From: Cytophagales bacterium
GTDB lineage: Bacteria > Bacteroidota > Bacteroidia > Cytophagales > Cytophagaceae
Direction: 5' to 3'
Assembly: GCA_013297765.1 (NCBI GenBank)
Contig: JAAFID010000015.1
Coordinates: 1-37,901 of the forward strand
DNA: 37,901 bases
Shown here: piece by piece, positions 25,022 to 33,025 of the stretch
Position numbering within the stretch: position 1 is the stretch's first letter
Layout: each line of letters starts with the position of its first letter
The notes under the pieces: model-generated
Told to the model about the DNA's origin: nothing
What the model saw: only the letters and a program-made list of their open reading frames with translations
The model's database searches: none
Translations under genes and position numbers: made by a program

Positions 25022-25073
25022 CTCCATCATTCATAACTCATAACTCATCATTCATAACTCATAACTATTTCGT
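25022..25073. repeat. AT-rich microrepeat at the fic 3' end
   Basis: Imperfect tandem words ATCATTCATAACTCATAACTC. The last codons and the stop of fic lie inside the array, so the Fic C-terminus (IVMSYE) is encoded by repeat sequence. Related to 23185-23225. Confidence 0.65.
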
Positions 25074-26169
25074 AACTCGTACTCCTCCCACCAGCCGCTT
25101 CTTTTTGTAGCATATTTTTGTCAATCAAATCATTTATATCTCTTATGGCGGTATCTTTTGAGCATTTGGCAATCTTTGCCCATTTTGAGGAAGTGAGTTT
25201 TCCATCAAATCTATCCAGCAACATATTTAATATTTTTTTTTGTCTTTCATTTATTGGTGTGGTCGAATGCCGAGTCCAAAAGTCTGCTTTATGTAAAACT
25301 TTGACTAACAAATGATCGGTAGATTTTAAAGCACTGATGACGCAATTTAAAAACCATTGAATCCATGCTGTGATGTCCAAATTTCCTTTTTGTGTTTTTT
25401 CCAATATTTCGTAGTATTCTTTTCTTTCTATTCTTATTTGTGCCGACATACTATAAAAACGTTGATTGCTTTTATCTGATTGAGCCAATAACATGTCTGT
25501 CAATGCTCTGGTGATGCGACCATTACCATCTTCAAAAGGATGTATAGTAACAAACCATAGATGGGCTATGGCGGCTTTTATCACAAAATCTATTTTTTGA
25601 TTATCGTTAAACCAAATTAAAAACTGTTGCATTTCATTCTCTACCAAAATTGAATCTGGAGCTTGAAAATGCACCTTTTCTTTTCCCATAGCACCTGACA
25701 CTACCTGCATAGGGCCTGTGGTATCCTTTCGCCAATCTGCTACGGTAATCTTGTGCATTCCACTTCTACCATTGGGGAATAGTGCAGCATGCCAATCAAA
25801 TAGTCTTTGTGCACTTAATGGCTTAAAACAATGTTGTGTAGCATCTAGCATCATTTCTACTACACCGTCTATATTTCGATCTGATGGTACTAAACCTGCT
25901 ATTTCCATACCTAGTCTACGGGCTATGGAGGAGCGGACTTGCTCAGGATTATAATATTCTCCTTCAATCTCTGAGGATTTCAATACATCTAGTGTCAAGG
26001 TATCCAGCAAAGCATTGTTTCTAAAATCAAACCCTAACGCTTCCATTTTCCCCATTAGCCTTCCTTGTAAATTTCTAGTTTCACTTAACAAGTTAACTAT
26101 GGCATCATTTGCCCACGTAAATTGTGGCCAATGGATTTGTTGATGAATAAAAGTTGCCATTCGCAGCAT
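25048..26169 (-). CDS. Fic family AMP-transferase with N-terminal DUF4172 and C-terminal winged helix
   Basis: A 373-residue Fic protein that would transfer AMP (or another nucleotide moiety) to target proteins. Order: DUF4172-like N-domain (about 5-90) carrying a class II inhibitory motif S-x3-E-G (S65 to G70 within SSEIEGEYY), the Fic core with HPFEDGNGR (catalytic H210), and a C-terminal winged helix (about 305-365, SSKWAKIAKCSKDTAIRDI). All core residues are present, so it should be active and self-inhibited. TTG 26178 would add three residues inside a hairpin; ATG 26169 is preferred. A divergent XRE gene begins 112 bp away. Target unknown. Confidence 0.92.
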   Translation of the reverse strand: MLRMATFIHQQIHWPQFTWANDAIVNLLSETRNLQGRLMGKMEALGFDFRNNALLDTLTLDVLKSSEIEGEYYNPEQVRSSIARRLGMEIAGLVPSDRNIDGVVEMMLDATQHCFKPLSAQRLFDWHAALFPNGRSGMHKITVADWRKDTTGPMQVVSGAMGKEKVHFQAPDSILVENEMQQFLIWFNDNQKIDFVIKAAIAHLWFVTIHPFEDGNGRITRALTDMLLAQSDKSNQRFYSMSAQIRIERKEYYEILEKTQKGNLDITAWIQWFLNCVISALKSTDHLLVKVLHKADFWTRHSTTPINERQKKILNMLLDRFDGKLTSSKWAKIAKCSKDTAIRDINDLIDKNMLQKEAAGGRSTSYEIVMSYE

Positions 26170-26208
26170 ATTTTGCAATGAATATAGGCATTATTCGTTG
26201 CATGGGAA
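26020..26208. repeat. 189-bp direct repeat, copy 2 (within and upstream of intact fic)
   Basis: The intact-gene copy of the repeat at 24685-24873. The hairpin here (26174-26202) has one mismatch compared with copy 1. Recombination between the copies would delete 1,335 bp, including most of fic. Confidence 0.92.
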
Positions 26209-26776: not shown

Positions 26777-28546
26777 TTAATATCCAGGATTTTGTACCAA
26801 GGACCCATTGCTTTTATCTATTTCAAATTGAGGCTTTGGTAATAGAGAATGCACATTTAACATAAAACTAGATTTCTTGTCTTCCAAATTTGCCCTAGGT
26901 GCAGATTTGGATGTAAAGATTGTTGCTGCATTTCCTGGGTGATTAGGAATTTTGCTCCATCTAATCATATCCAAATATCTAGTACCTTCAAAAGCTAATT
27001 CAACCCTTCTTTCATGAACTAAAGCTTTTCTAAACGAATTCAAATCAGAACTATAGATTACAGTATCACCAGCATAATAAGGTGCAGCCTGTGAAAAAGT
27101 TGTTACTTGGGTAGTTTTATTATAATTAATAGCCAATAAATTCCCACCATATCTGGTATTAGATGGAAAATCTGGAAGCACATTAGTATTTATAGATGAC
27201 GTTCTTGCTCTTCTTCTTATATCATTTAATTGACTTATGGCTTGACCAGTAGCAGCTTGTGCCGCTTCGGCTAGTGCCTCAGCATACATTAACTTGACAT
27301 CTGCTAGTCGCATTAAAATAATTCCATCTGGAGAATCGTCGTCATTACTTCCTAGCAACGGATTAGTACCAACTTGGCCAGGAGTCATTTTCTTGATATT
27401 ATAAAATTCACCAACCCTCTTAGGGATTTTTCTGCCCAAGGTTGTGGCTAAAGACATTCTAGACGAATATGCGCTGCCGTAACCAGATTCTAAAACTGGA
27501 TTTGTTAAATACAAAGCAGTATCTCCAACTGTCCATAAAGTTTCTTTTAACCTAGGGTCATTTGGCTCAAATTCATTATATAAATCTTTGGTGCCAATTA
27601 TAGATCCTCCTAGTGGATTAAGTTCTCTTATACCATAATATACATTTTTCGTATTCCCTTCCCCAGAAACACCACCATCAGTAAAGAAATTTCCAAAAGC
27701 TACTTTTGCAAACCCGCTTCTGAACTGTATTTCAAATAAACTCTCCTGAGTATTGATGTTACTATTATAACCTTTAGCAAATACATCTTTAAATTTAGGA
27801 ACTAATGCTCTATCGCTTTCGGTAATTACTTTCTCAAAAGCATTTTTGGCATTTTCCCATTGTTGGTTATATAAATGATTTTTACCTAAAAAAGCATAAG
27901 CAGAATATTTGGTAGCTCGACCTCTTTCTTGTATTGACCAAGCATTAGGCAAGTTTCCAATAGCAAAATTAAAATCATCATTAATCTGTTGATTAATTTC
28001 CTCTAGCGATGCTTCTGATTTAAATAAATCTTCATAGCTTTTTGGTGAAATAGGGTATAATGGTACTTTCCCAAACAATGTTTTTAAATAAAAATAATAT
28101 AGTCCTCTTAAAAACCTTGCTTGTGCAATTATTTGATTTTTACGAGTCTGATCCATAGAAATATTAGGAACATTTTCTATTACTTTATTTGATCGTTGAA
28201 TTCCTTCGTAAGATTTACCCCACATTTCTGTAAGACTAGTGCCAAGCAATGAAGGATTCCAACCAAAATTGTCGTATAATGCTAGCTCTCTTCCGTGGTC
28301 AGTAAATGTAGAATCTCTAAAAGTTGCATCGTCAGAAGCTAAATCAGACATAAAAGGGAAATTTTGCTTAAACATGTGACCTGATTGCAAGCATGCATAA
28401 GCTGCAACAATGGCTTTCTGAGCATCATCTTCGGTTTTATAAAAATTATCTTCGACTATATCACTTAGAGGTGGCTTGTTCAAATAATCCTTTTTGCATC
28501 CCAAAATGGATAAACTAATTAAAGTTAATAGTAAGAACTTTTTCAT
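26777..28546 (-). CDS. SusD/RagB family nutrient-binding lipoprotein
   Basis: A surface lipoprotein that captures oligosaccharides or other ligands and forms a lid on its SusC partner. Lipobox LSILGC with C17, then the SusD helical TPR fold (NFYKTEDDAQKAIVAAYACL, ARFLRGLYYFYLKTLFGKVP, LMRLADVKLMYAEALAEA) and the C-terminal RagB/SusD part (RRVELAFEGTRYLDMIRW). At 589 residues it is full length. It lies 21 bp downstream of susC in one operon. No glycoside hydrolase, protease or sulfatase is linked, so the ligand cannot be inferred. Its last 85 bp have a diverged duplicate just downstream. Confidence 0.95.
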   Translation of the reverse strand: MKKFLLLTLISLSILGCKKDYLNKPPLSDIVEDNFYKTEDDAQKAIVAAYACLQSGHMFKQNFPFMSDLASDDATFRDSTFTDHGRELALYDNFGWNPSLLGTSLTEMWGKSYEGIQRSNKVIENVPNISMDQTRKNQIIAQARFLRGLYYFYLKTLFGKVPLYPISPKSYEDLFKSEASLEEINQQINDDFNFAIGNLPNAWSIQERGRATKYSAYAFLGKNHLYNQQWENAKNAFEKVITESDRALVPKFKDVFAKGYNSNINTQESLFEIQFRSGFAKVAFGNFFTDGGVSGEGNTKNVYYGIRELNPLGGSIIGTKDLYNEFEPNDPRLKETLWTVGDTALYLTNPVLESGYGSAYSSRMSLATTLGRKIPKRVGEFYNIKKMTPGQVGTNPLLGSNDDDSPDGIILMRLADVKLMYAEALAEAAQAATGQAISQLNDIRRRARTSSINTNVLPDFPSNTRYGGNLLAINYNKTTQVTTFSQAAPYYAGDTVIYSSDLNSFRKALVHERRVELAFEGTRYLDMIRWSKIPNHPGNAATIFTSKSAPRANLEDKKSSFMLNVHSLLPKPQFEIDKSNGSLVQNPGY

Positions 28547-28567: not shown

Positions 28568-31500
28568 TTAAAAACTAATTTGTAAACCAGCTAAATATGT
28601 TCTTGCCTGTGGGTAGGTGCCGCCATCAATACCCGTTTGCAAAGGGTCTTTTCCATTAGCTAACGGGTCATTTAATTTTATGGGTGATCCTACCTCTGGA
28701 TCATAACCTTTATATTTTGTAATTGTCAATGCATTCATCACGCTTCCATAAATTCTCAATGTAAACTCATCAGACTTTGACACTAGATTTGTGATAGATT
28801 TTGGTAACGTGTAACCTAACTGAATATTTTTAATACGCATAAATGCACCACTCTCCACCCATCTATCAGATATTCGCATGTTATTGTTAGGGTCACCTAA
28901 AGCAGCTCTAGGCATAGTTGAAGAAGTTCCTTCACCATTCCATCTATCTCTAGTCGTTTCTAATTGGTTTGCTCTTGGTGGAGAGCCACCACCCATAGAT
29001 TCTAGAGCCTGTCTTTGTGTATTCAAAAGATCATTACCTGCCACACCTTGCAAAAACAATTTAAAATCAATTCCTTTATATTCTGCTGAAAAGTTGGCTC
29101 CAAAGGAGATTTTGGGAATAGAATTTCCAATCACGACTCTATCTTTAGCATCTATTATTCCATCTCCATTAGTGTCTTTAAATAAAATATCCCCTGGCTT
29201 TGTTAAATCTCTCGTTCCTTTATTTTGAGCAGCTGCAGCGTCAATGTCTGCTTGATTTTGAGCAATTTTATCAACTTTATACCCGTAGAATGCTCCAACT
29301 GTTCCATTTACTTGCGTAATTGTATTAGATGTGGTAGCATCTCCACTAAAAATAGGGGAATCTTTGTCACCTAATTTTGTAACTCTATTTGTTATTTGTG
29401 ATAAATTACCACCAACAGAATATTTTAAGGCATGATCTTCATTTCTATATGTAAGGCTTAGTTCATAACCTTTGTTTGTCATGTCACCAGCATTAATCCA
29501 TTGTTTAAAACTATTGTTTTCACCTTCTAAGTAAAAGCCAGAAGTTGCAGGAATAGGCAATTCAATCAACATGCCTTTGTTTTGTTTTATAAAATAATCG
29601 AAAGTAAATGATATTTTATTTTTAAATAAACCTAAATCAACTCCAAAATTGGTCTGAGTAACTTCTTCCCATTTCAAAAATCTATTCGCTAAATTTTGCG
29701 GAGCGATTCCTGGTTTAACACTATCACCAACAGGATACTTTATTTTATCGTTCATTATTGTAAAGATTCTATTAGACAGCAATGCGTCTTGACTACCAGT
29801 CACTCCCCATGAAGCCCTAAATTTTAAATCACTAAAATATGCTTTCACAAAAGGTATTGTTGAAATAAATTTTTCCTCCAATGGTCTCCAACCTATAGAA
29901 GCGGAAGGGAATAATCCATATCTATTTTCACTGCCAAATTTTGAAGAACCGTCATACCGAGTATTGATAGTTAACAAATATTTATTAGCATAAGAGTAAT
30001 TAATCCTACCTAAATAACCCTTCAAGGCAGCTTGACCAGCCGTAGAACCTGTAAGAATACCATTACCTCCATATCCTACCGTATTAATTGAGGTGGGAAC
30101 AGTAGAATTATTGCCACTTATGTTTTGATCACTAAAATCTTGCATGGAAATACCTCCTAAGATAAGAAAGTCATGCTTTTCTCCAAAAGTTTTTTGATAC
30201 GATAATATATTATCAAATAATTTCACAAGAGAATATTTAGCCTCGTAAGAAACATTTCTTTTAAAAACGTCTGCTTGGTATGGCTTTGCATCTCCTGAAT
30301 TAAACAACTCATTTAATCCAGTAGTAGTTGTATTGATTAAATCTAGCCCAAAATTAAATCTGTATTTTAATCCTTGCAAAGGTTCTAGTTCTGCATAAAT
30401 ATTACCTAAGGTTCTAAAGTTTACTGTTGAGTTATTCTTAGATGCATTCAATGCTACTGGATTTGGCCAATTGAAACCACCCAATTTCGTAGAATCAATT
30501 AAAGCGAAATTACCTGTATTATCTCTAACAGGTAACAGCGGTGTCATTAATGAGGAATTGTATATTAAAGCATTAGGACTAAAACCTGTTTTATCGTTGG
30601 TTCTTGATATAGATACGGACTCACCTACTCGCAACCACTTTTTGATGTTTAAATCTGAGTTTACTCTAAATGAATATCTGTCAAAAGCAGATGATATAAC
30701 TGTACCATCATTTTTAAAGTAACCCCCACTTATACTATATGTGCCATTACCATTACCTCCGCTTATGCTTAAATTGTAATTTTGCTGATAACCAGTTTTA
30801 AAAATTTGGTCTTGCCAATTGGTATTGTTATTAAGATAAGAATTATTAGCATCAGAGAATGCGGCAGGAAGTGTTTGTCCAACATTTTTAAACTGTTCAT
30901 TAATGAGTGATAAATATTGTGCATTATCTAAAACTTTTAGTTTCTTCCACACTTGTTGCATACCGATAGAACTTTCAAAATTTACTCTTGCTGAACCTTC
31001 TTTCCCACGTTTGGTGGTAATTATCACAACACCATTTGCTCCTCTAGCCCCATAAATGGCCGTCGCCGAAGCATCCTTTAAAACATCAATTGTTTGTATA
31101 TCACTTGGATTTATTAAATTAATTGCAGAGCCATCAGTTGGCAGTCCATCTATAACATATAAAGGTTCACTATTTGACAAACTACCAAGACCTCTCACTT
31201 TAACTGAAGATGTAGAGCCAGGAGCACCTGAAGTTTGGGTAACAGTAACACCCGCCATTCTTCCTTGCATTGCATTTTCTAAACTAGGATTTACAGTTAA
31301 CTTCATGTCCTTTTCATTAACGGAAGTAATTGCTTCAGTAATTTTTGGCTTTACTTTTGTTCCATAACCAATGGCAACTACTTCATCCAACACTTCAGAA
31401 TCTTCAGCTAACTTAGCATCTATAACAGCTTGTCCCTTTACTTGGACTGTTTGGGTTTTATTGCCTAAAAAACTAAATTTTAACGAAGATAGGTTCATGT

Positions 31501-31753
31501 CTTTTACTTCTATAGAATAGTTGCCATCCATATCGGTTACGGTACCGCCTATGTTTTTCTTAAAGGCATCTATCACCTCTATGGTAGCCCCTATGATGGG
31601 TTCGCCTTTGTCGTCCAGCACTTTCCCTGTTACCGTGCCGCTTTGTGCTAGGGCTTGAAAGCTAGTGATAGAAAGCAATAATAATACTAACAATTTGTTC
31701 AGAAATTGTGGTGGCTTAAAACTCCACATTTCCACAGTAACCTGTTTTTTCAT
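28568..31753 (-). CDS. SusC/RagA family TonB-linked outer-membrane transporter
   Basis: The channel half of a SusCD pair, taking up ligands captured by SusD with energy from TonB. Signal peptide (1-36, ends FQALAQ), a carboxypeptidase-like domain (about 38-115, VTGKVLDDKGEPIIGATIEV), a TonB-box-like stretch with VVAIGYG, a SusC-type plug (about 130-250, MQGRMAGVTVTQTSGAPGS, YVIDGLPTDG, DATAIYGARG-like motif as DASATAIYGARGANGV) and a roughly 800-residue barrel ending LAGLQISF. At 1,061 residues it is a full-length, intact frame. The first roughly 250 bp are richer in GC (about 45% by hand count over 31501-31680) than the next 240 bp (about 34%), a possible mosaic join. Confidence 0.95.
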   Translation of the reverse strand: MKKQVTVEMWSFKPPQFLNKLLVLLLLSITSFQALAQSGTVTGKVLDDKGEPIIGATIEVIDAFKKNIGGTVTDMDGNYSIEVKDMNLSSLKFSFLGNKTQTVQVKGQAVIDAKLAEDSEVLDEVVAIGYGTKVKPKITEAITSVNEKDMKLTVNPSLENAMQGRMAGVTVTQTSGAPGSTSSVKVRGLGSLSNSEPLYVIDGLPTDGSAINLINPSDIQTIDVLKDASATAIYGARGANGVVIITTKRGKEGSARVNFESSIGMQQVWKKLKVLDNAQYLSLINEQFKNVGQTLPAAFSDANNSYLNNNTNWQDQIFKTGYQQNYNLSISGGNGNGTYSISGGYFKNDGTVISSAFDRYSFRVNSDLNIKKWLRVGESVSISRTNDKTGFSPNALIYNSSLMTPLLPVRDNTGNFALIDSTKLGGFNWPNPVALNASKNNSTVNFRTLGNIYAELEPLQGLKYRFNFGLDLINTTTTGLNELFNSGDAKPYQADVFKRNVSYEAKYSLVKLFDNILSYQKTFGEKHDFLILGGISMQDFSDQNISGNNSTVPTSINTVGYGGNGILTGSTAGQAALKGYLGRINYSYANKYLLTINTRYDGSSKFGSENRYGLFPSASIGWRPLEEKFISTIPFVKAYFSDLKFRASWGVTGSQDALLSNRIFTIMNDKIKYPVGDSVKPGIAPQNLANRFLKWEEVTQTNFGVDLGLFKNKISFTFDYFIKQNKGMLIELPIPATSGFYLEGENNSFKQWINAGDMTNKGYELSLTYRNEDHALKYSVGGNLSQITNRVTKLGDKDSPIFSGDATTSNTITQVNGTVGAFYGYKVDKIAQNQADIDAAAAQNKGTRDLTKPGDILFKDTNGDGIIDAKDRVVIGNSIPKISFGANFSAEYKGIDFKLFLQGVAGNDLLNTQRQALESMGGGSPPRANQLETTRDRWNGEGTSSTMPRAALGDPNNNMRISDRWVESGAFMRIKNIQLGYTLPKSITNLVSKSDEFTLRIYGSVMNALTITKYKGYDPEVGSPIKLNDPLANGKDPLQTGIDGGTYPQARTYLAGLQISF

Positions 31754-31849
31754 AAGTTTTTGTTTTACAAGAATGGTTTTTGAAATAAAAATTTCAGAGG
31801 TTAATTGTTATAGCCGATGGTTACCAAAAAGGTAGCTTCAGATTTGCTT

Positions 31850-31881
31850 CAAAGTTTGTTTTTTTTTTTTTGCTATGCAAA
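31850..31881 (-). promoter_or_regulatory. candidate susCD promoter with 13-A tract in the spacer
   Basis: On the minus strand TTTG (31878-31881), a 20-base spacer and AAACTTTG (31850-31857, one base from TAnnTTTG) form a Bacteroidota promoter about 100 bp before susC. The spacer contains 13 consecutive A (31859-31871). Slippage in this run would change the spacing between the elements. Arms AGATTTGC (31877-31884) and GCAAATCT (31840-31847) form an 8-bp inverted repeat around the promoter. Confidence 0.5.
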
Positions 31882-31932
31882 TCTTTTCATTAAAATATTG
31901 CAAGTATTTTCTACAAATAATTCTAGTTTGGG

Positions 31933-32095
31933 TTACGTGGTACGTTTTTAGGTTGCACTATTGCCTTACATTTTCTAGTTCTAGCAGGATAGGGGTTAAA
32001 AAAACTTTGCGACTTGACGGCTTTGCGTGATAAATAAAAATAATATTGCTTGCAAAGACGCAAGGAAGCAATGAAAAATTTAGCGGTATAAATGT
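31933..32095. repeat. dispersed intergenic repeats in the susC-upstream gap
   Basis: The 408-bp gap between susC and the Rpn-like gene holds no gene. It contains the ACGTGGTACGTTTTTAGG word of the intergenic repeat family (31934-31952) and, at 32005-32076, the words CTTTGCGACTTGACGGCTTT and TGCAAAGACGCAAGG, which partly pair. The first recurs at 33178-33197 with one mismatch. I recognise the CTTTGCG/CGCAAAG type as a common intergenic repeat of Bacteroidota. Confidence 0.6.
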
Positions 32096-32161
32096 TATCA
32101 GTATAAAAATTTGATTGCGAGCGTTTTCTTATCAAGTTGCAACTTGACAACAAAACATAAA

Positions 32162-33025
32162 TTATTTATTTTTCTTTGTTAAATTTTCAATTAGTTTCCT
32201 CATTTCTAATAACTCTTTATCCTTTTTATTTATTGTATCAACTAAATCTCCTATTTGTCTTTCTTTGTGTTCGAGTTCAGCTAATATTTCATCTTCGATA
32301 TTCATTGTGTTTTGTATATCCTCATCTAATACTGCTTTTTGTAGCTTTCGTATTATTTCTCTATACTCGTCTGGAAAATCATTCTCGTTTATATTTAATA
32401 TATGGTCGCTTTCCTTTTGACTTTGATCGAATATACTTAATAATTTTTCTAAATCATTTCGACGTTTTCCTTTTAATTCAGGAATCTGTATGATAAAACT
32501 ATCGTGTGTTAAACTTTCTATAAATTCTTCTTTGTGTTTTAAAATCTCGCCTGTAGCTATGTCTATATAATTACGACTGACTTTTATTATTGGTGCAGTT
32601 TCATAATCTAGGGTGTGTCCTAAAAAATATATGGAAACTATTGGAAATGCAGTTCTGCGTTCTTTATCTTTAATCTTGGTTACTGTCGAATTTTTGTCTG
32701 AAAAATATTGTTGACCTAAATATCTACGAAAACGCATGATATCTGTAGGAAACTTAGCTTTTTGAATTTCAATCAATACTTTTTGATAGCCTCCTGTTGA
32801 TAATTTAATTTTTGCTGCAAAATCAAGTCTATATACTGTAAACGAAGCCTTTGACTTTTCTTTTCCTGATGCAGGACGTTCTATTTCAACTATATTTTCT
32901 TTTGGTTGAAATTCTATCTCTTCAATATCCTGCCCAATAATTTTAGAAATAACAAGTTTTGCAATCTTATTATCATCTAATAAATATTTGAAAACAACAT
33001 CATATATCGGATTAGCAATTTTCAT
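32162..33025 (-). CDS. Rpn/PD-(D/E)XK nuclease family protein (transposase_31-like)
   Basis: A 287-residue protein of the PD-(D/E)XK nuclease family transposase/Rpn group, DNA endonucleases that promote RecA-independent recombination. N-terminal typical start (NPIYDVVFKYLLDDNKIAKL), catalytic core with D68 (VYRLDFAAKI) and E86-x-Q88 (LIEIQKA), then MRFRRYLGQQYF, all expected for an active nuclease. The C-terminal about 60 residues (LAELEHKERQIGDLVDTINK onward) are a coiled coil. There is no inverted repeat or target duplication around it, so it is not an insertion sequence by itself. It lies among dispersed repeats and close to a truncated gene, which may or may not be related. Confidence 0.85.
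   Translation of the reverse strand: MKIANPIYDVVFKYLLDDNKIAKLVISKIIGQDIEEIEFQPKENIVEIERPASGKEKSKASFTVYRLDFAAKIKLSTGGYQKVLIEIQKAKFPTDIMRFRRYLGQQYFSDKNSTVTKIKDKERRTAFPIVSIYFLGHTLDYETAPIIKVSRNYIDIATGEILKHKEEFIESLTHDSFIIQIPELKGKRRNDLEKLLSIFDQSQKESDHILNINENDFPDEYREIIRKLQKAVLDEDIQNTMNIEDEILAELEHKERQIGDLVDTINKKDKELLEMRKLIENLTKKNK

What the first reader, a model, noticed from the sequence alone, without database searches (positions are those of the whole stretch)
31850..31881. Homopolymer of 13 A inside the spacer of the candidate susCD promoter
The minus strand has TTTG, exactly 20 bases, then AAACTTTG (seen). This fits the Bacteroidota promoter form TTTG-N19-21-TAnnTTTG with one mismatch (established consensus). 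Thirteen of the 20 spacer bases are an uninterrupted A-run, which polymerase can slip on. Adding or losing an A would shift spacing and so switch or tune expression of the SusCD pair. Slippage-controlled promoter spacing is known in Proteobacteria; Bacteroidota SusCD loci are better known for invertible promoters. The switch is inference.
Basis: partly seen in the sequence, partly recalled or inferred. Interest (0 to 1): 0.65.

Follow-up and report, generated by a model that had tools for sequence, protein, structure and literature searches.

The report
Conserved susC promoter with A-tract spacer
The run of 13 A's sits inside what is probably the genuine promoter of a nutrient-uptake gene pair, but the nearest relative keeps the same total spacing, so the run looks like a structural part of the promoter rather than a slippage switch.

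Summary
The letters are as described: TTTG, 20 bases with 13 A's, AAACTTTG, about 100 bp before susC. The run is the longest A/T homopolymer in the 3.56-Mb draft genome. By sequence alone the promoter call is no better than chance: a fit with at most one mismatch occurs in 429 of 2000 shuffles, and AAnnTTTG is not enriched upstream of genes here. Comparison rescues it. The only other same-genus genome held ends a contig in a matching block (46 of 58 positions; at most 37 elsewhere) with TTTG, exactly 20 bases and AAACTTTG, though its SusC is only 49% identical. The runs are A13 and A11, but total spacing is unchanged. Across 292 genomes of the order, A10 tracts inside consensus promoters occur 60 times against 6 for the reversed control. 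Of 72 such sites examined, 49 have spacers of 18-20, many before tRNA, ribosomal-protein or metabolic genes; one block keeps A10 in five species. Best reading: a conserved promoter of the Bacteroidota primary-sigma type with an unusual -7 element and an A-tract spacer. A slippage switch is possible but unsupported here; a lipoprotein-like gene array in another genome (G457) is a better candidate.

The parts
31882..31907 (-). A/T-rich block just upstream of the -33-like TTTG, partly conserved in the genus mate (19 of 26 positions); possible UP-like region
   Evidence: the UP-like role is inference
31878..31881 (-). TTTG, -33-like element
   Evidence: identical at the same distance in G001:C48
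31858..31877 (-). 20-base spacer (CATAGC, A13, C)
   Evidence: also 20 bases in G001 (TATAAAT, A11, CC)
31859..31871 (-). A13 tract, longest A/T run in the genome; positions -14 to -26 if the -7 element ends at -5
   Evidence: numbering by analogy with PMC6847099
31850..31857 (-). AAACTTTG, -7-like element with A in place of the usual first T
   Evidence: identical in G001; AAnnTTTG not enriched in the own genome
31754..31845 (-). inferred 92-nt leader of the susC transcript, start near 31845
   Evidence: inference from the usual -7-to-start distance; start site not mapped
28568..31753 (-). susC-like TonB-dependent receptor, 1061 aa (Plug, CarboxypepD_reg-like)
26777..28546 (-). susD-like lipoprotein, 589 aa (SusD_RagB, SusD-like_3)

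Best explanation
The stretch 31850-31881 on the minus strand is the core of a conserved promoter that drives the susC-susD pair. RNA polymerase with the Bacteroidota primary sigma factor (or a relative of it) would contact TTTG and AAACTTTG. The A tract between them gives the spacer its shape and helps to hold the two contacts at a fixed distance of 20 bases. The A in place of the first T of the -7 element should make the promoter weak on its own, which would fit an activator or a second sigma factor. Shown: the letters, the rarity of the run, the conserved block in the genus mate with unchanged spacing, and the excess of A-tract spacers at 18-20 bases in promoters of the order. Inferred: the transcription start, which sigma factor acts, the mechanical role of the tract, the need for an activator, and that the block in the genus mate belongs to its susC.
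For:: in 292 genomes of the order the pattern TTTG..A10..BAAnnTTTG gives 9 places; two are this site and G001:C48:44-75, the only other genome of the genus held, both with spacer 20 and CAAACTTTG; anchored at the -7 element, without gaps, 46 of 58 positions agree over -50..+8; the next best 58-base window is 36 in 872,007 own bases and 37 in 295,009 bases of other order and phylum loci. The flanks agree at 21 of 69 (upstream) and 16 of 42 (downstream); blastn E 9.5e-8; the 25 specified bases common to both blocks match without mismatch only in these two of 292 genomes (partly by construction); the other 12 places all have 3 mismatches, against 7 in the reversed control. SusC identity 49%. TAnnTTTG is enriched on the sense strand here (177/113), with TTTG at 19 (10/4) and 20 (6/2). 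A10 inside TTTG..TAnnTTTG, 60 places against 6 controls; 49 of 72 sites examined have spacers of 18-20, where a flat spread would give about 21%.
Against: Only one relative is available, and its contig ends 43 bases past the block; its susC begins on another contig at codon 58, so the link is inferred. The -7 form AAnnTTTG is not enriched in this genome (91 sense, 98 antisense), and the A10 plus AAnnTTTG pattern is not enriched over the order (9 against 8 controls). The motif alone is at chance level. Of 58 susC homologue upstream regions none has an A/T run above 9. The upstream 26 bases alone (19 of 26) are not remarkable.
Confidence: 0.68

Rival explanations
1. Slippage switch: the A13 tract gains or loses bases in replication, changing the TTTG to AAACTTTG distance and so turning susCD expression up, down or off in part of the population.
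For: The run is long, unique in the genome and lies inside a conserved promoter block. In G457 four near-identical promoters have A11, A10, A10 and A12 with spacers 19, 18, 18 and 20, so the length of such tracts does change between copies. G488 has A14 with spacer 23 before a lipoprotein-like gene. Surface receptors are typical phase-variable genes (established knowledge).
Against: The genus mate has A11 but the same total of 20. MAFFT and the anchored comparison need no gap; blastn sets one compensating pair of single-base gaps at the edges of the run, none inside it. In one family A10 is kept in five species with proteins 46-71% identical. A10-spacer promoters often precede housekeeping genes; 0 of 39 scanned downstream proteins matched a TonB-receptor or SusD family. 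No read-level variation could be tested.
Confidence: 0.14
2. Chance: an A/T-rich gap that happens to hold a long A run and a one-mismatch promoter look-alike; the real promoter is elsewhere.
For: 429 of 2000 shuffles and 51 of 210 antisense upstream regions hold as good a match; AAnnTTTG is not enriched.
Against: The 58-base block with TTTG, 20 bases and AAACTTTG recurs in the genus mate far above background, and no TAnnTTTG without mismatch lies in the 408-bp gap.
Confidence: 0.1
3. The conserved block is mainly a regulator-binding site or a promoter of a different (for example ECF) sigma factor. CAAACTTTG is a near-perfect inverted repeat (CAAA, C, TTTG), and the A tract is a spacer within it.
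For: The non-consensus A is kept in both genomes and conservation reaches upstream of TTTG. B. thetaiotaomicron has a second promoter class (PMC7366714, passages).
Against: TTTG at 20 bases from nAnnTTTG fits the primary-sigma layout; no regulator gene was identified beside the pair, and the neighbouring 287-aa product has no Pfam match.
Confidence: 0.08

Closest known systems
Bacteroidota primary-sigma (sigma-ABfr) promoters, TTTG / TAnnTTTG, with an AT-rich spacer (PMC7366714 and PMC6847099, passages seen)
   Same: TTTG, distance of 20, second A, TTTG of the -7 element, A/T-rich spacer; F. johnsoniae shows AT-rich motifs at -18 and -28, the stretch the A tract covers or adjoins
   Different: first base of the -7 element is A instead of the nearly invariant T; 13 A's without interruption
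Mycoplasma hyorhinis vlp promoters (poly-A between -35 and -10; recalled; the paper looked up is not held)
   Same: a long A run in the promoter spacer before a surface-protein gene
   Different: there, length change is an experimentally shown ON/OFF switch (recalled); here total spacing is kept in the one relative and no variation is shown
Helicobacter pylori sabA T-tract (PMC4081817, passages seen)
   Same: A/T homopolymer of similar length before an outer-membrane protein gene
   Different: the sabA tract lies upstream of the core promoter and acts on UP-like contacts; lengths range from T5 to T22 among strains
Bacteroides invertible promoters (recalled; mentioned in PMC11868660 passages)
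   Same: surface and polysaccharide-use genes under variable promoters
   Different: DNA inversion by recombinases; I did not search this window for an invertase or for inverted repeats around the promoter

Membership tests
Bacteroidota primary-sigma promoter | TTTG about 19-21 bases upstream of the -7 element | tested here: met
   TTTG and exactly 20 bases; same in G001
Bacteroidota primary-sigma promoter | -7 element TAnnTTTG | tested here: not met
   AAACTTTG; the AAnnTTTG class shows no sense-strand enrichment here (91/98) while TAnnTTTG does (177/113). It may work like such a promoter but is not a consensus member
Bacteroidota primary-sigma promoter | conservation of the site in relatives | tested here: met
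   46 of 58 positions in the one genus mate; not found outside the genus
Bacteroidota primary-sigma promoter | transcription start 4-5 nt after the -7 element | not testable with these tools
   no transcript data
Slippage-controlled (phase-variable) promoter | long simple repeat within the promoter | tested here: met
   A13
Slippage-controlled (phase-variable) promoter | repeat length changes spacing between related genomes | tested here: not met
   A13 and A11, yet spacer 20 in both; two genomes only
Slippage-controlled (phase-variable) promoter | length variants within one population | not testable with these tools
   no reads; viral contigs pattern search found no other copy
Slippage-controlled (phase-variable) promoter | expression differs with length | not testable with these tools
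   needs a reporter assay
SusC/SusD pair | TonB-dependent receptor with Plug and CarboxypepD-like domain next to a SusD_RagB lipoprotein | tested here: met
   the pair is also adjacent in G001:C66

The most novel reading that the evidence does not exclude
Homopolymeric A tracts inside primary-sigma promoter spacers are an overlooked source of tunable expression in Bacteroidota. In most genes they are kept at a fixed spacing as a structural element, but in some surface genes (the G457 array, possibly this susC) the same element is free to slip and sets expression levels.
Probability: 0.13. Interest if true: 0.7.

Novelty: new variant of a known kind. Interest (0 to 1): 0.36.

Why it matters
If the reading holds, long A tracts in promoters of this order are a normal spacer architecture, also found before tRNA and ribosomal-protein genes, so a homopolymer in a spacer is not by itself a mark of phase variation. 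It also gives a susC promoter with a conserved non-consensus -7 base, which could show how SusCD genes are held low until activated, and it points to one array (G457) where spacer tracts do differ between near-identical copies.

Tried and rejected
Motif match as evidence for the promoter: rejected, it is at chance level. Intrinsic terminator on the plus strand made by the T13 run: rejected, the scan finds none there. Structured leader RNA: no Rfam match in 31400-32400. Sigma-70-type promoters: 7 found against 2.9 expected in shuffles (sd 1.9); not pursued, since this consensus is not the one used in Bacteroidota. A conserved A run before susC homologues in general: not found, 58 upstream regions have no run above 9 (start codons chosen mechanically, some wrong). 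More copies of the site: none in viral contigs, no match of the 701-bp region in the genus mate (the block was found later by pattern). Plasmid records: only homologues under 60% identity, not used. A wider test with the same A10 pattern gave 12 places against 4 controls in 392 genomes of the phylum and 1 against 0 in 19 of the family, so the excess is clear only in the order. T10 in place of A10 is also over control but less so: 26 against 9, 14 of the 26 with spacers 19-21; the effect is therefore not strictly specific to A. Pfam was run on 39 of 44 downstream proteins of the 18-20 class; five were not scanned, four of them of one homologous set whose member L244 was scanned without a match. 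Paper searches for A-tract spacers in Bacteroidetes promoters and phase variation in Saprospiraceae listed nothing; one search listed one Bacteroides fragilis paper, of which I saw passages only. Searches gave listings in which I saw no report of a slippage-controlled promoter in Bacteroidota; from them I opened passages of PMC11868660, PMC3090145, PMC6847099 and PMC7366714.

Full report
Observation. The ATG of a 1061-aa SusC-like receptor follows at 31753, and a 589-aa SusD-like protein comes after it. In the whole genome (3,558,024 bases, 290 contigs) no other A/T run reaches 12; 21 distinct runs reach 10 (25 placements). Runs above 8 become scarce in this genome: in 60 stretches not chosen for runs there were 169 of length 8, 27 of 9, 3 of 10 and none longer. 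The run is therefore an outlier here, although 12 of 19 family genomes hold runs of 12 or more.

The motif alone proves nothing. In 79 own stretches (909,908 bp, 379 upstream regions) TAnnTTTG is enriched on the sense strand (177 against 113 antisense), only with two bases between TA and TTTG, and TTTG stands before it more often at 19 (10 against 4) and 20 bases (6 against 2). The form found here, AAnnTTTG, is not enriched (91 against 98). Allowing one mismatch, 429 of 2000 shuffles of the same gap hold a match, and 59 of 210 sense against 51 of 210 antisense regions do; with the first T wrong and the rest right it is 6 against 5 of 379. In F. johnsoniae the first T is nearly invariant (PMC6847099, passages).

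A relative makes the promoter credible. Only one other genome of the genus is held, G001. Its SusC is 49% identical but begins at codon 58 at a contig start, so its upstream region seemed lost. A pattern search with A10 and BAAnnTTTG over 292 genomes of the order gave 9 places against 8 for the reversed control, so no general excess; but two of the nine are this site and the end of contig C48 of G001. There the contig reads TTTG, TATAAAT, eleven A's, CC, AAACTTTG, and ends 43 bases later. blastn aligns it with window 31842-31903 at E 9.5e-8. Anchored at the -7 element without gaps, 46 of 58 positions agree, while the flanks agree at 21 of 69 and 16 of 42; the best other 58-base windows reach 36 in 872,007 own bases and 37 in 295,009 bases of other loci. 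The gene upstream differs: in G001 it is a 319-aa protein that I take for a MoxR-type ATPase from its sequence (recalled, not searched), here a 287-aa protein without a Pfam match. I read this as a footprint of the susC promoter; that C48 and C66 of G001 adjoin is inference.

What the run did between the two genomes. The totals are 6+13+1 and 7+11+2, both 20. MAFFT and the anchored comparison need no gap, so the run differs by substitutions at its edges. blastn prefers one compensating pair of single-base gaps at the edges, none inside the run. Either way the distance was kept. Two genomes cannot exclude switching, but they give no support for it.

A tracts in spacers are a pattern of the order. 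TTTG..A10..TAnnTTTG was found 60 times in 30 of 292 genomes against 6 for the reversed control, 12 against 4 in 392 genomes of the phylum and 1 against 0 in 19 of the family. T10 in place of A10 gave 26 against 9, so T tracts occur too, less often. I examined 72 A10 sites from order and phylum (one duplicate promoter merged, one overlapping second spacing added): 49 have spacers of 18-20 (8, 26, 15), 16 have 11-16 and 7 have 23-29; a flat spread would put about 21% at 18-20. Of the 49, five stand before a tRNA (two Phe, Lys, Tyr, Gly). Of 44 downstream proteins 39 were scanned: 30 matched a family and 9 none (one search also held one own-genome protein, below). They include ribosomal proteins L21, L13 and S12, EF-Tu, acyl carrier protein, pyruvate kinase, GAPDH, succinyl-CoA ligase and peroxiredoxin; others are lipoprotein-like or unknown; none matched a TonB receptor or SusD family. 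I made no baseline of which genes follow consensus promoters without a tract, so 'housekeeping' is a description, not a tested enrichment. In the own genome an A10 tract lies in a promoter-like site with one mismatch before topoisomerase I.

Are such tracts stable? In one family (f74) the block with A10 and spacer 19 is nearly unchanged in five species whose downstream proteins are 46-71% identical. In G457, by contrast, four near-identical promoters on one contig have A11, A10, A10 and A12 with spacers 19, 18, 18 and 20; three of the four proteins match DUF4221. So both fixed and varying tracts exist, and the window's site behaves like the fixed kind in the one comparison available.

Mechanism. 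I think the primary-sigma polymerase, or a close relative of it, uses TTTG and AAACTTTG at 20 bases, with the A tract as a spacer of special shape. If G of the -7 element is -5, as in F. johnsoniae, the start is near 31845, the leader is 92 nt and the tract spans -14 to -26, within the stretch where that species shows AT-rich motifs at -18 and -28. The conserved A in place of T should make the promoter weak, which would fit an activator. Start site, sigma factor, shape and activator are inference.

Comparison with known systems. It resembles Mycoplasma vlp promoters (recalled) and the Helicobacter sabA tract (passages) in having a long A/T run near a promoter of a surface gene, but the property that defines those systems, length change that alters expression, is not shown here. 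Searches for A-tract spacers in Bacteroidetes promoters and for phase variation in Saprospiraceae listed nothing in the library held; that the window belongs to that family is my guess from genome sizes and no call names it.

Verdict.

Noticed in passing
L271 (G457:C4:30000-48000) and L249 (G488): Four near-identical promoters with A11, A10, A10 and A12 in the spacer stand before lipoprotein-like paralogues, three matching DUF4221; G488 has A14 with spacer 23 before a protein with a weak, below-cut-off TolB_like match. Better slippage candidates than the window's site.
   Followed up: partly
L244, L245, L246, L273, L247: An A10-tract promoter block of about 80 bases is almost unchanged in five species although the proteins behind it, without a Pfam match where scanned (L244), are 46-71% identical.
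   Followed up: partly
window 31993-32065: A stretch with repeated CTTTGCG-like words and an inverted repeat; one copy is called terminator-like (32064-32049). It resembles dispersed repeats of Bacteroidota (recalled).
   Followed up: no
window 32123-32156: A GTTGCAACTTGA palindrome just after the upstream gene that matches itself on the other strand and a contig start, C119:35-77.
   Followed up: no
L147:11764-11773 (G000:C257): A10 in a promoter-like spacer of 21 bases with one mismatch (CATCTTTG), 142 bp before topoisomerase I.
   Followed up: no
window 25048-26178: A Fic-domain protein (DUF4172 + Fic) lies about 600 bp after susD on the same strand; no CAZyme matched among the 8 window proteins scanned.
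   Followed up: no
L225 (G018:C1:676552): A run of 85 A's interrupting a coding region, perhaps an assembly artefact.
   Followed up: no
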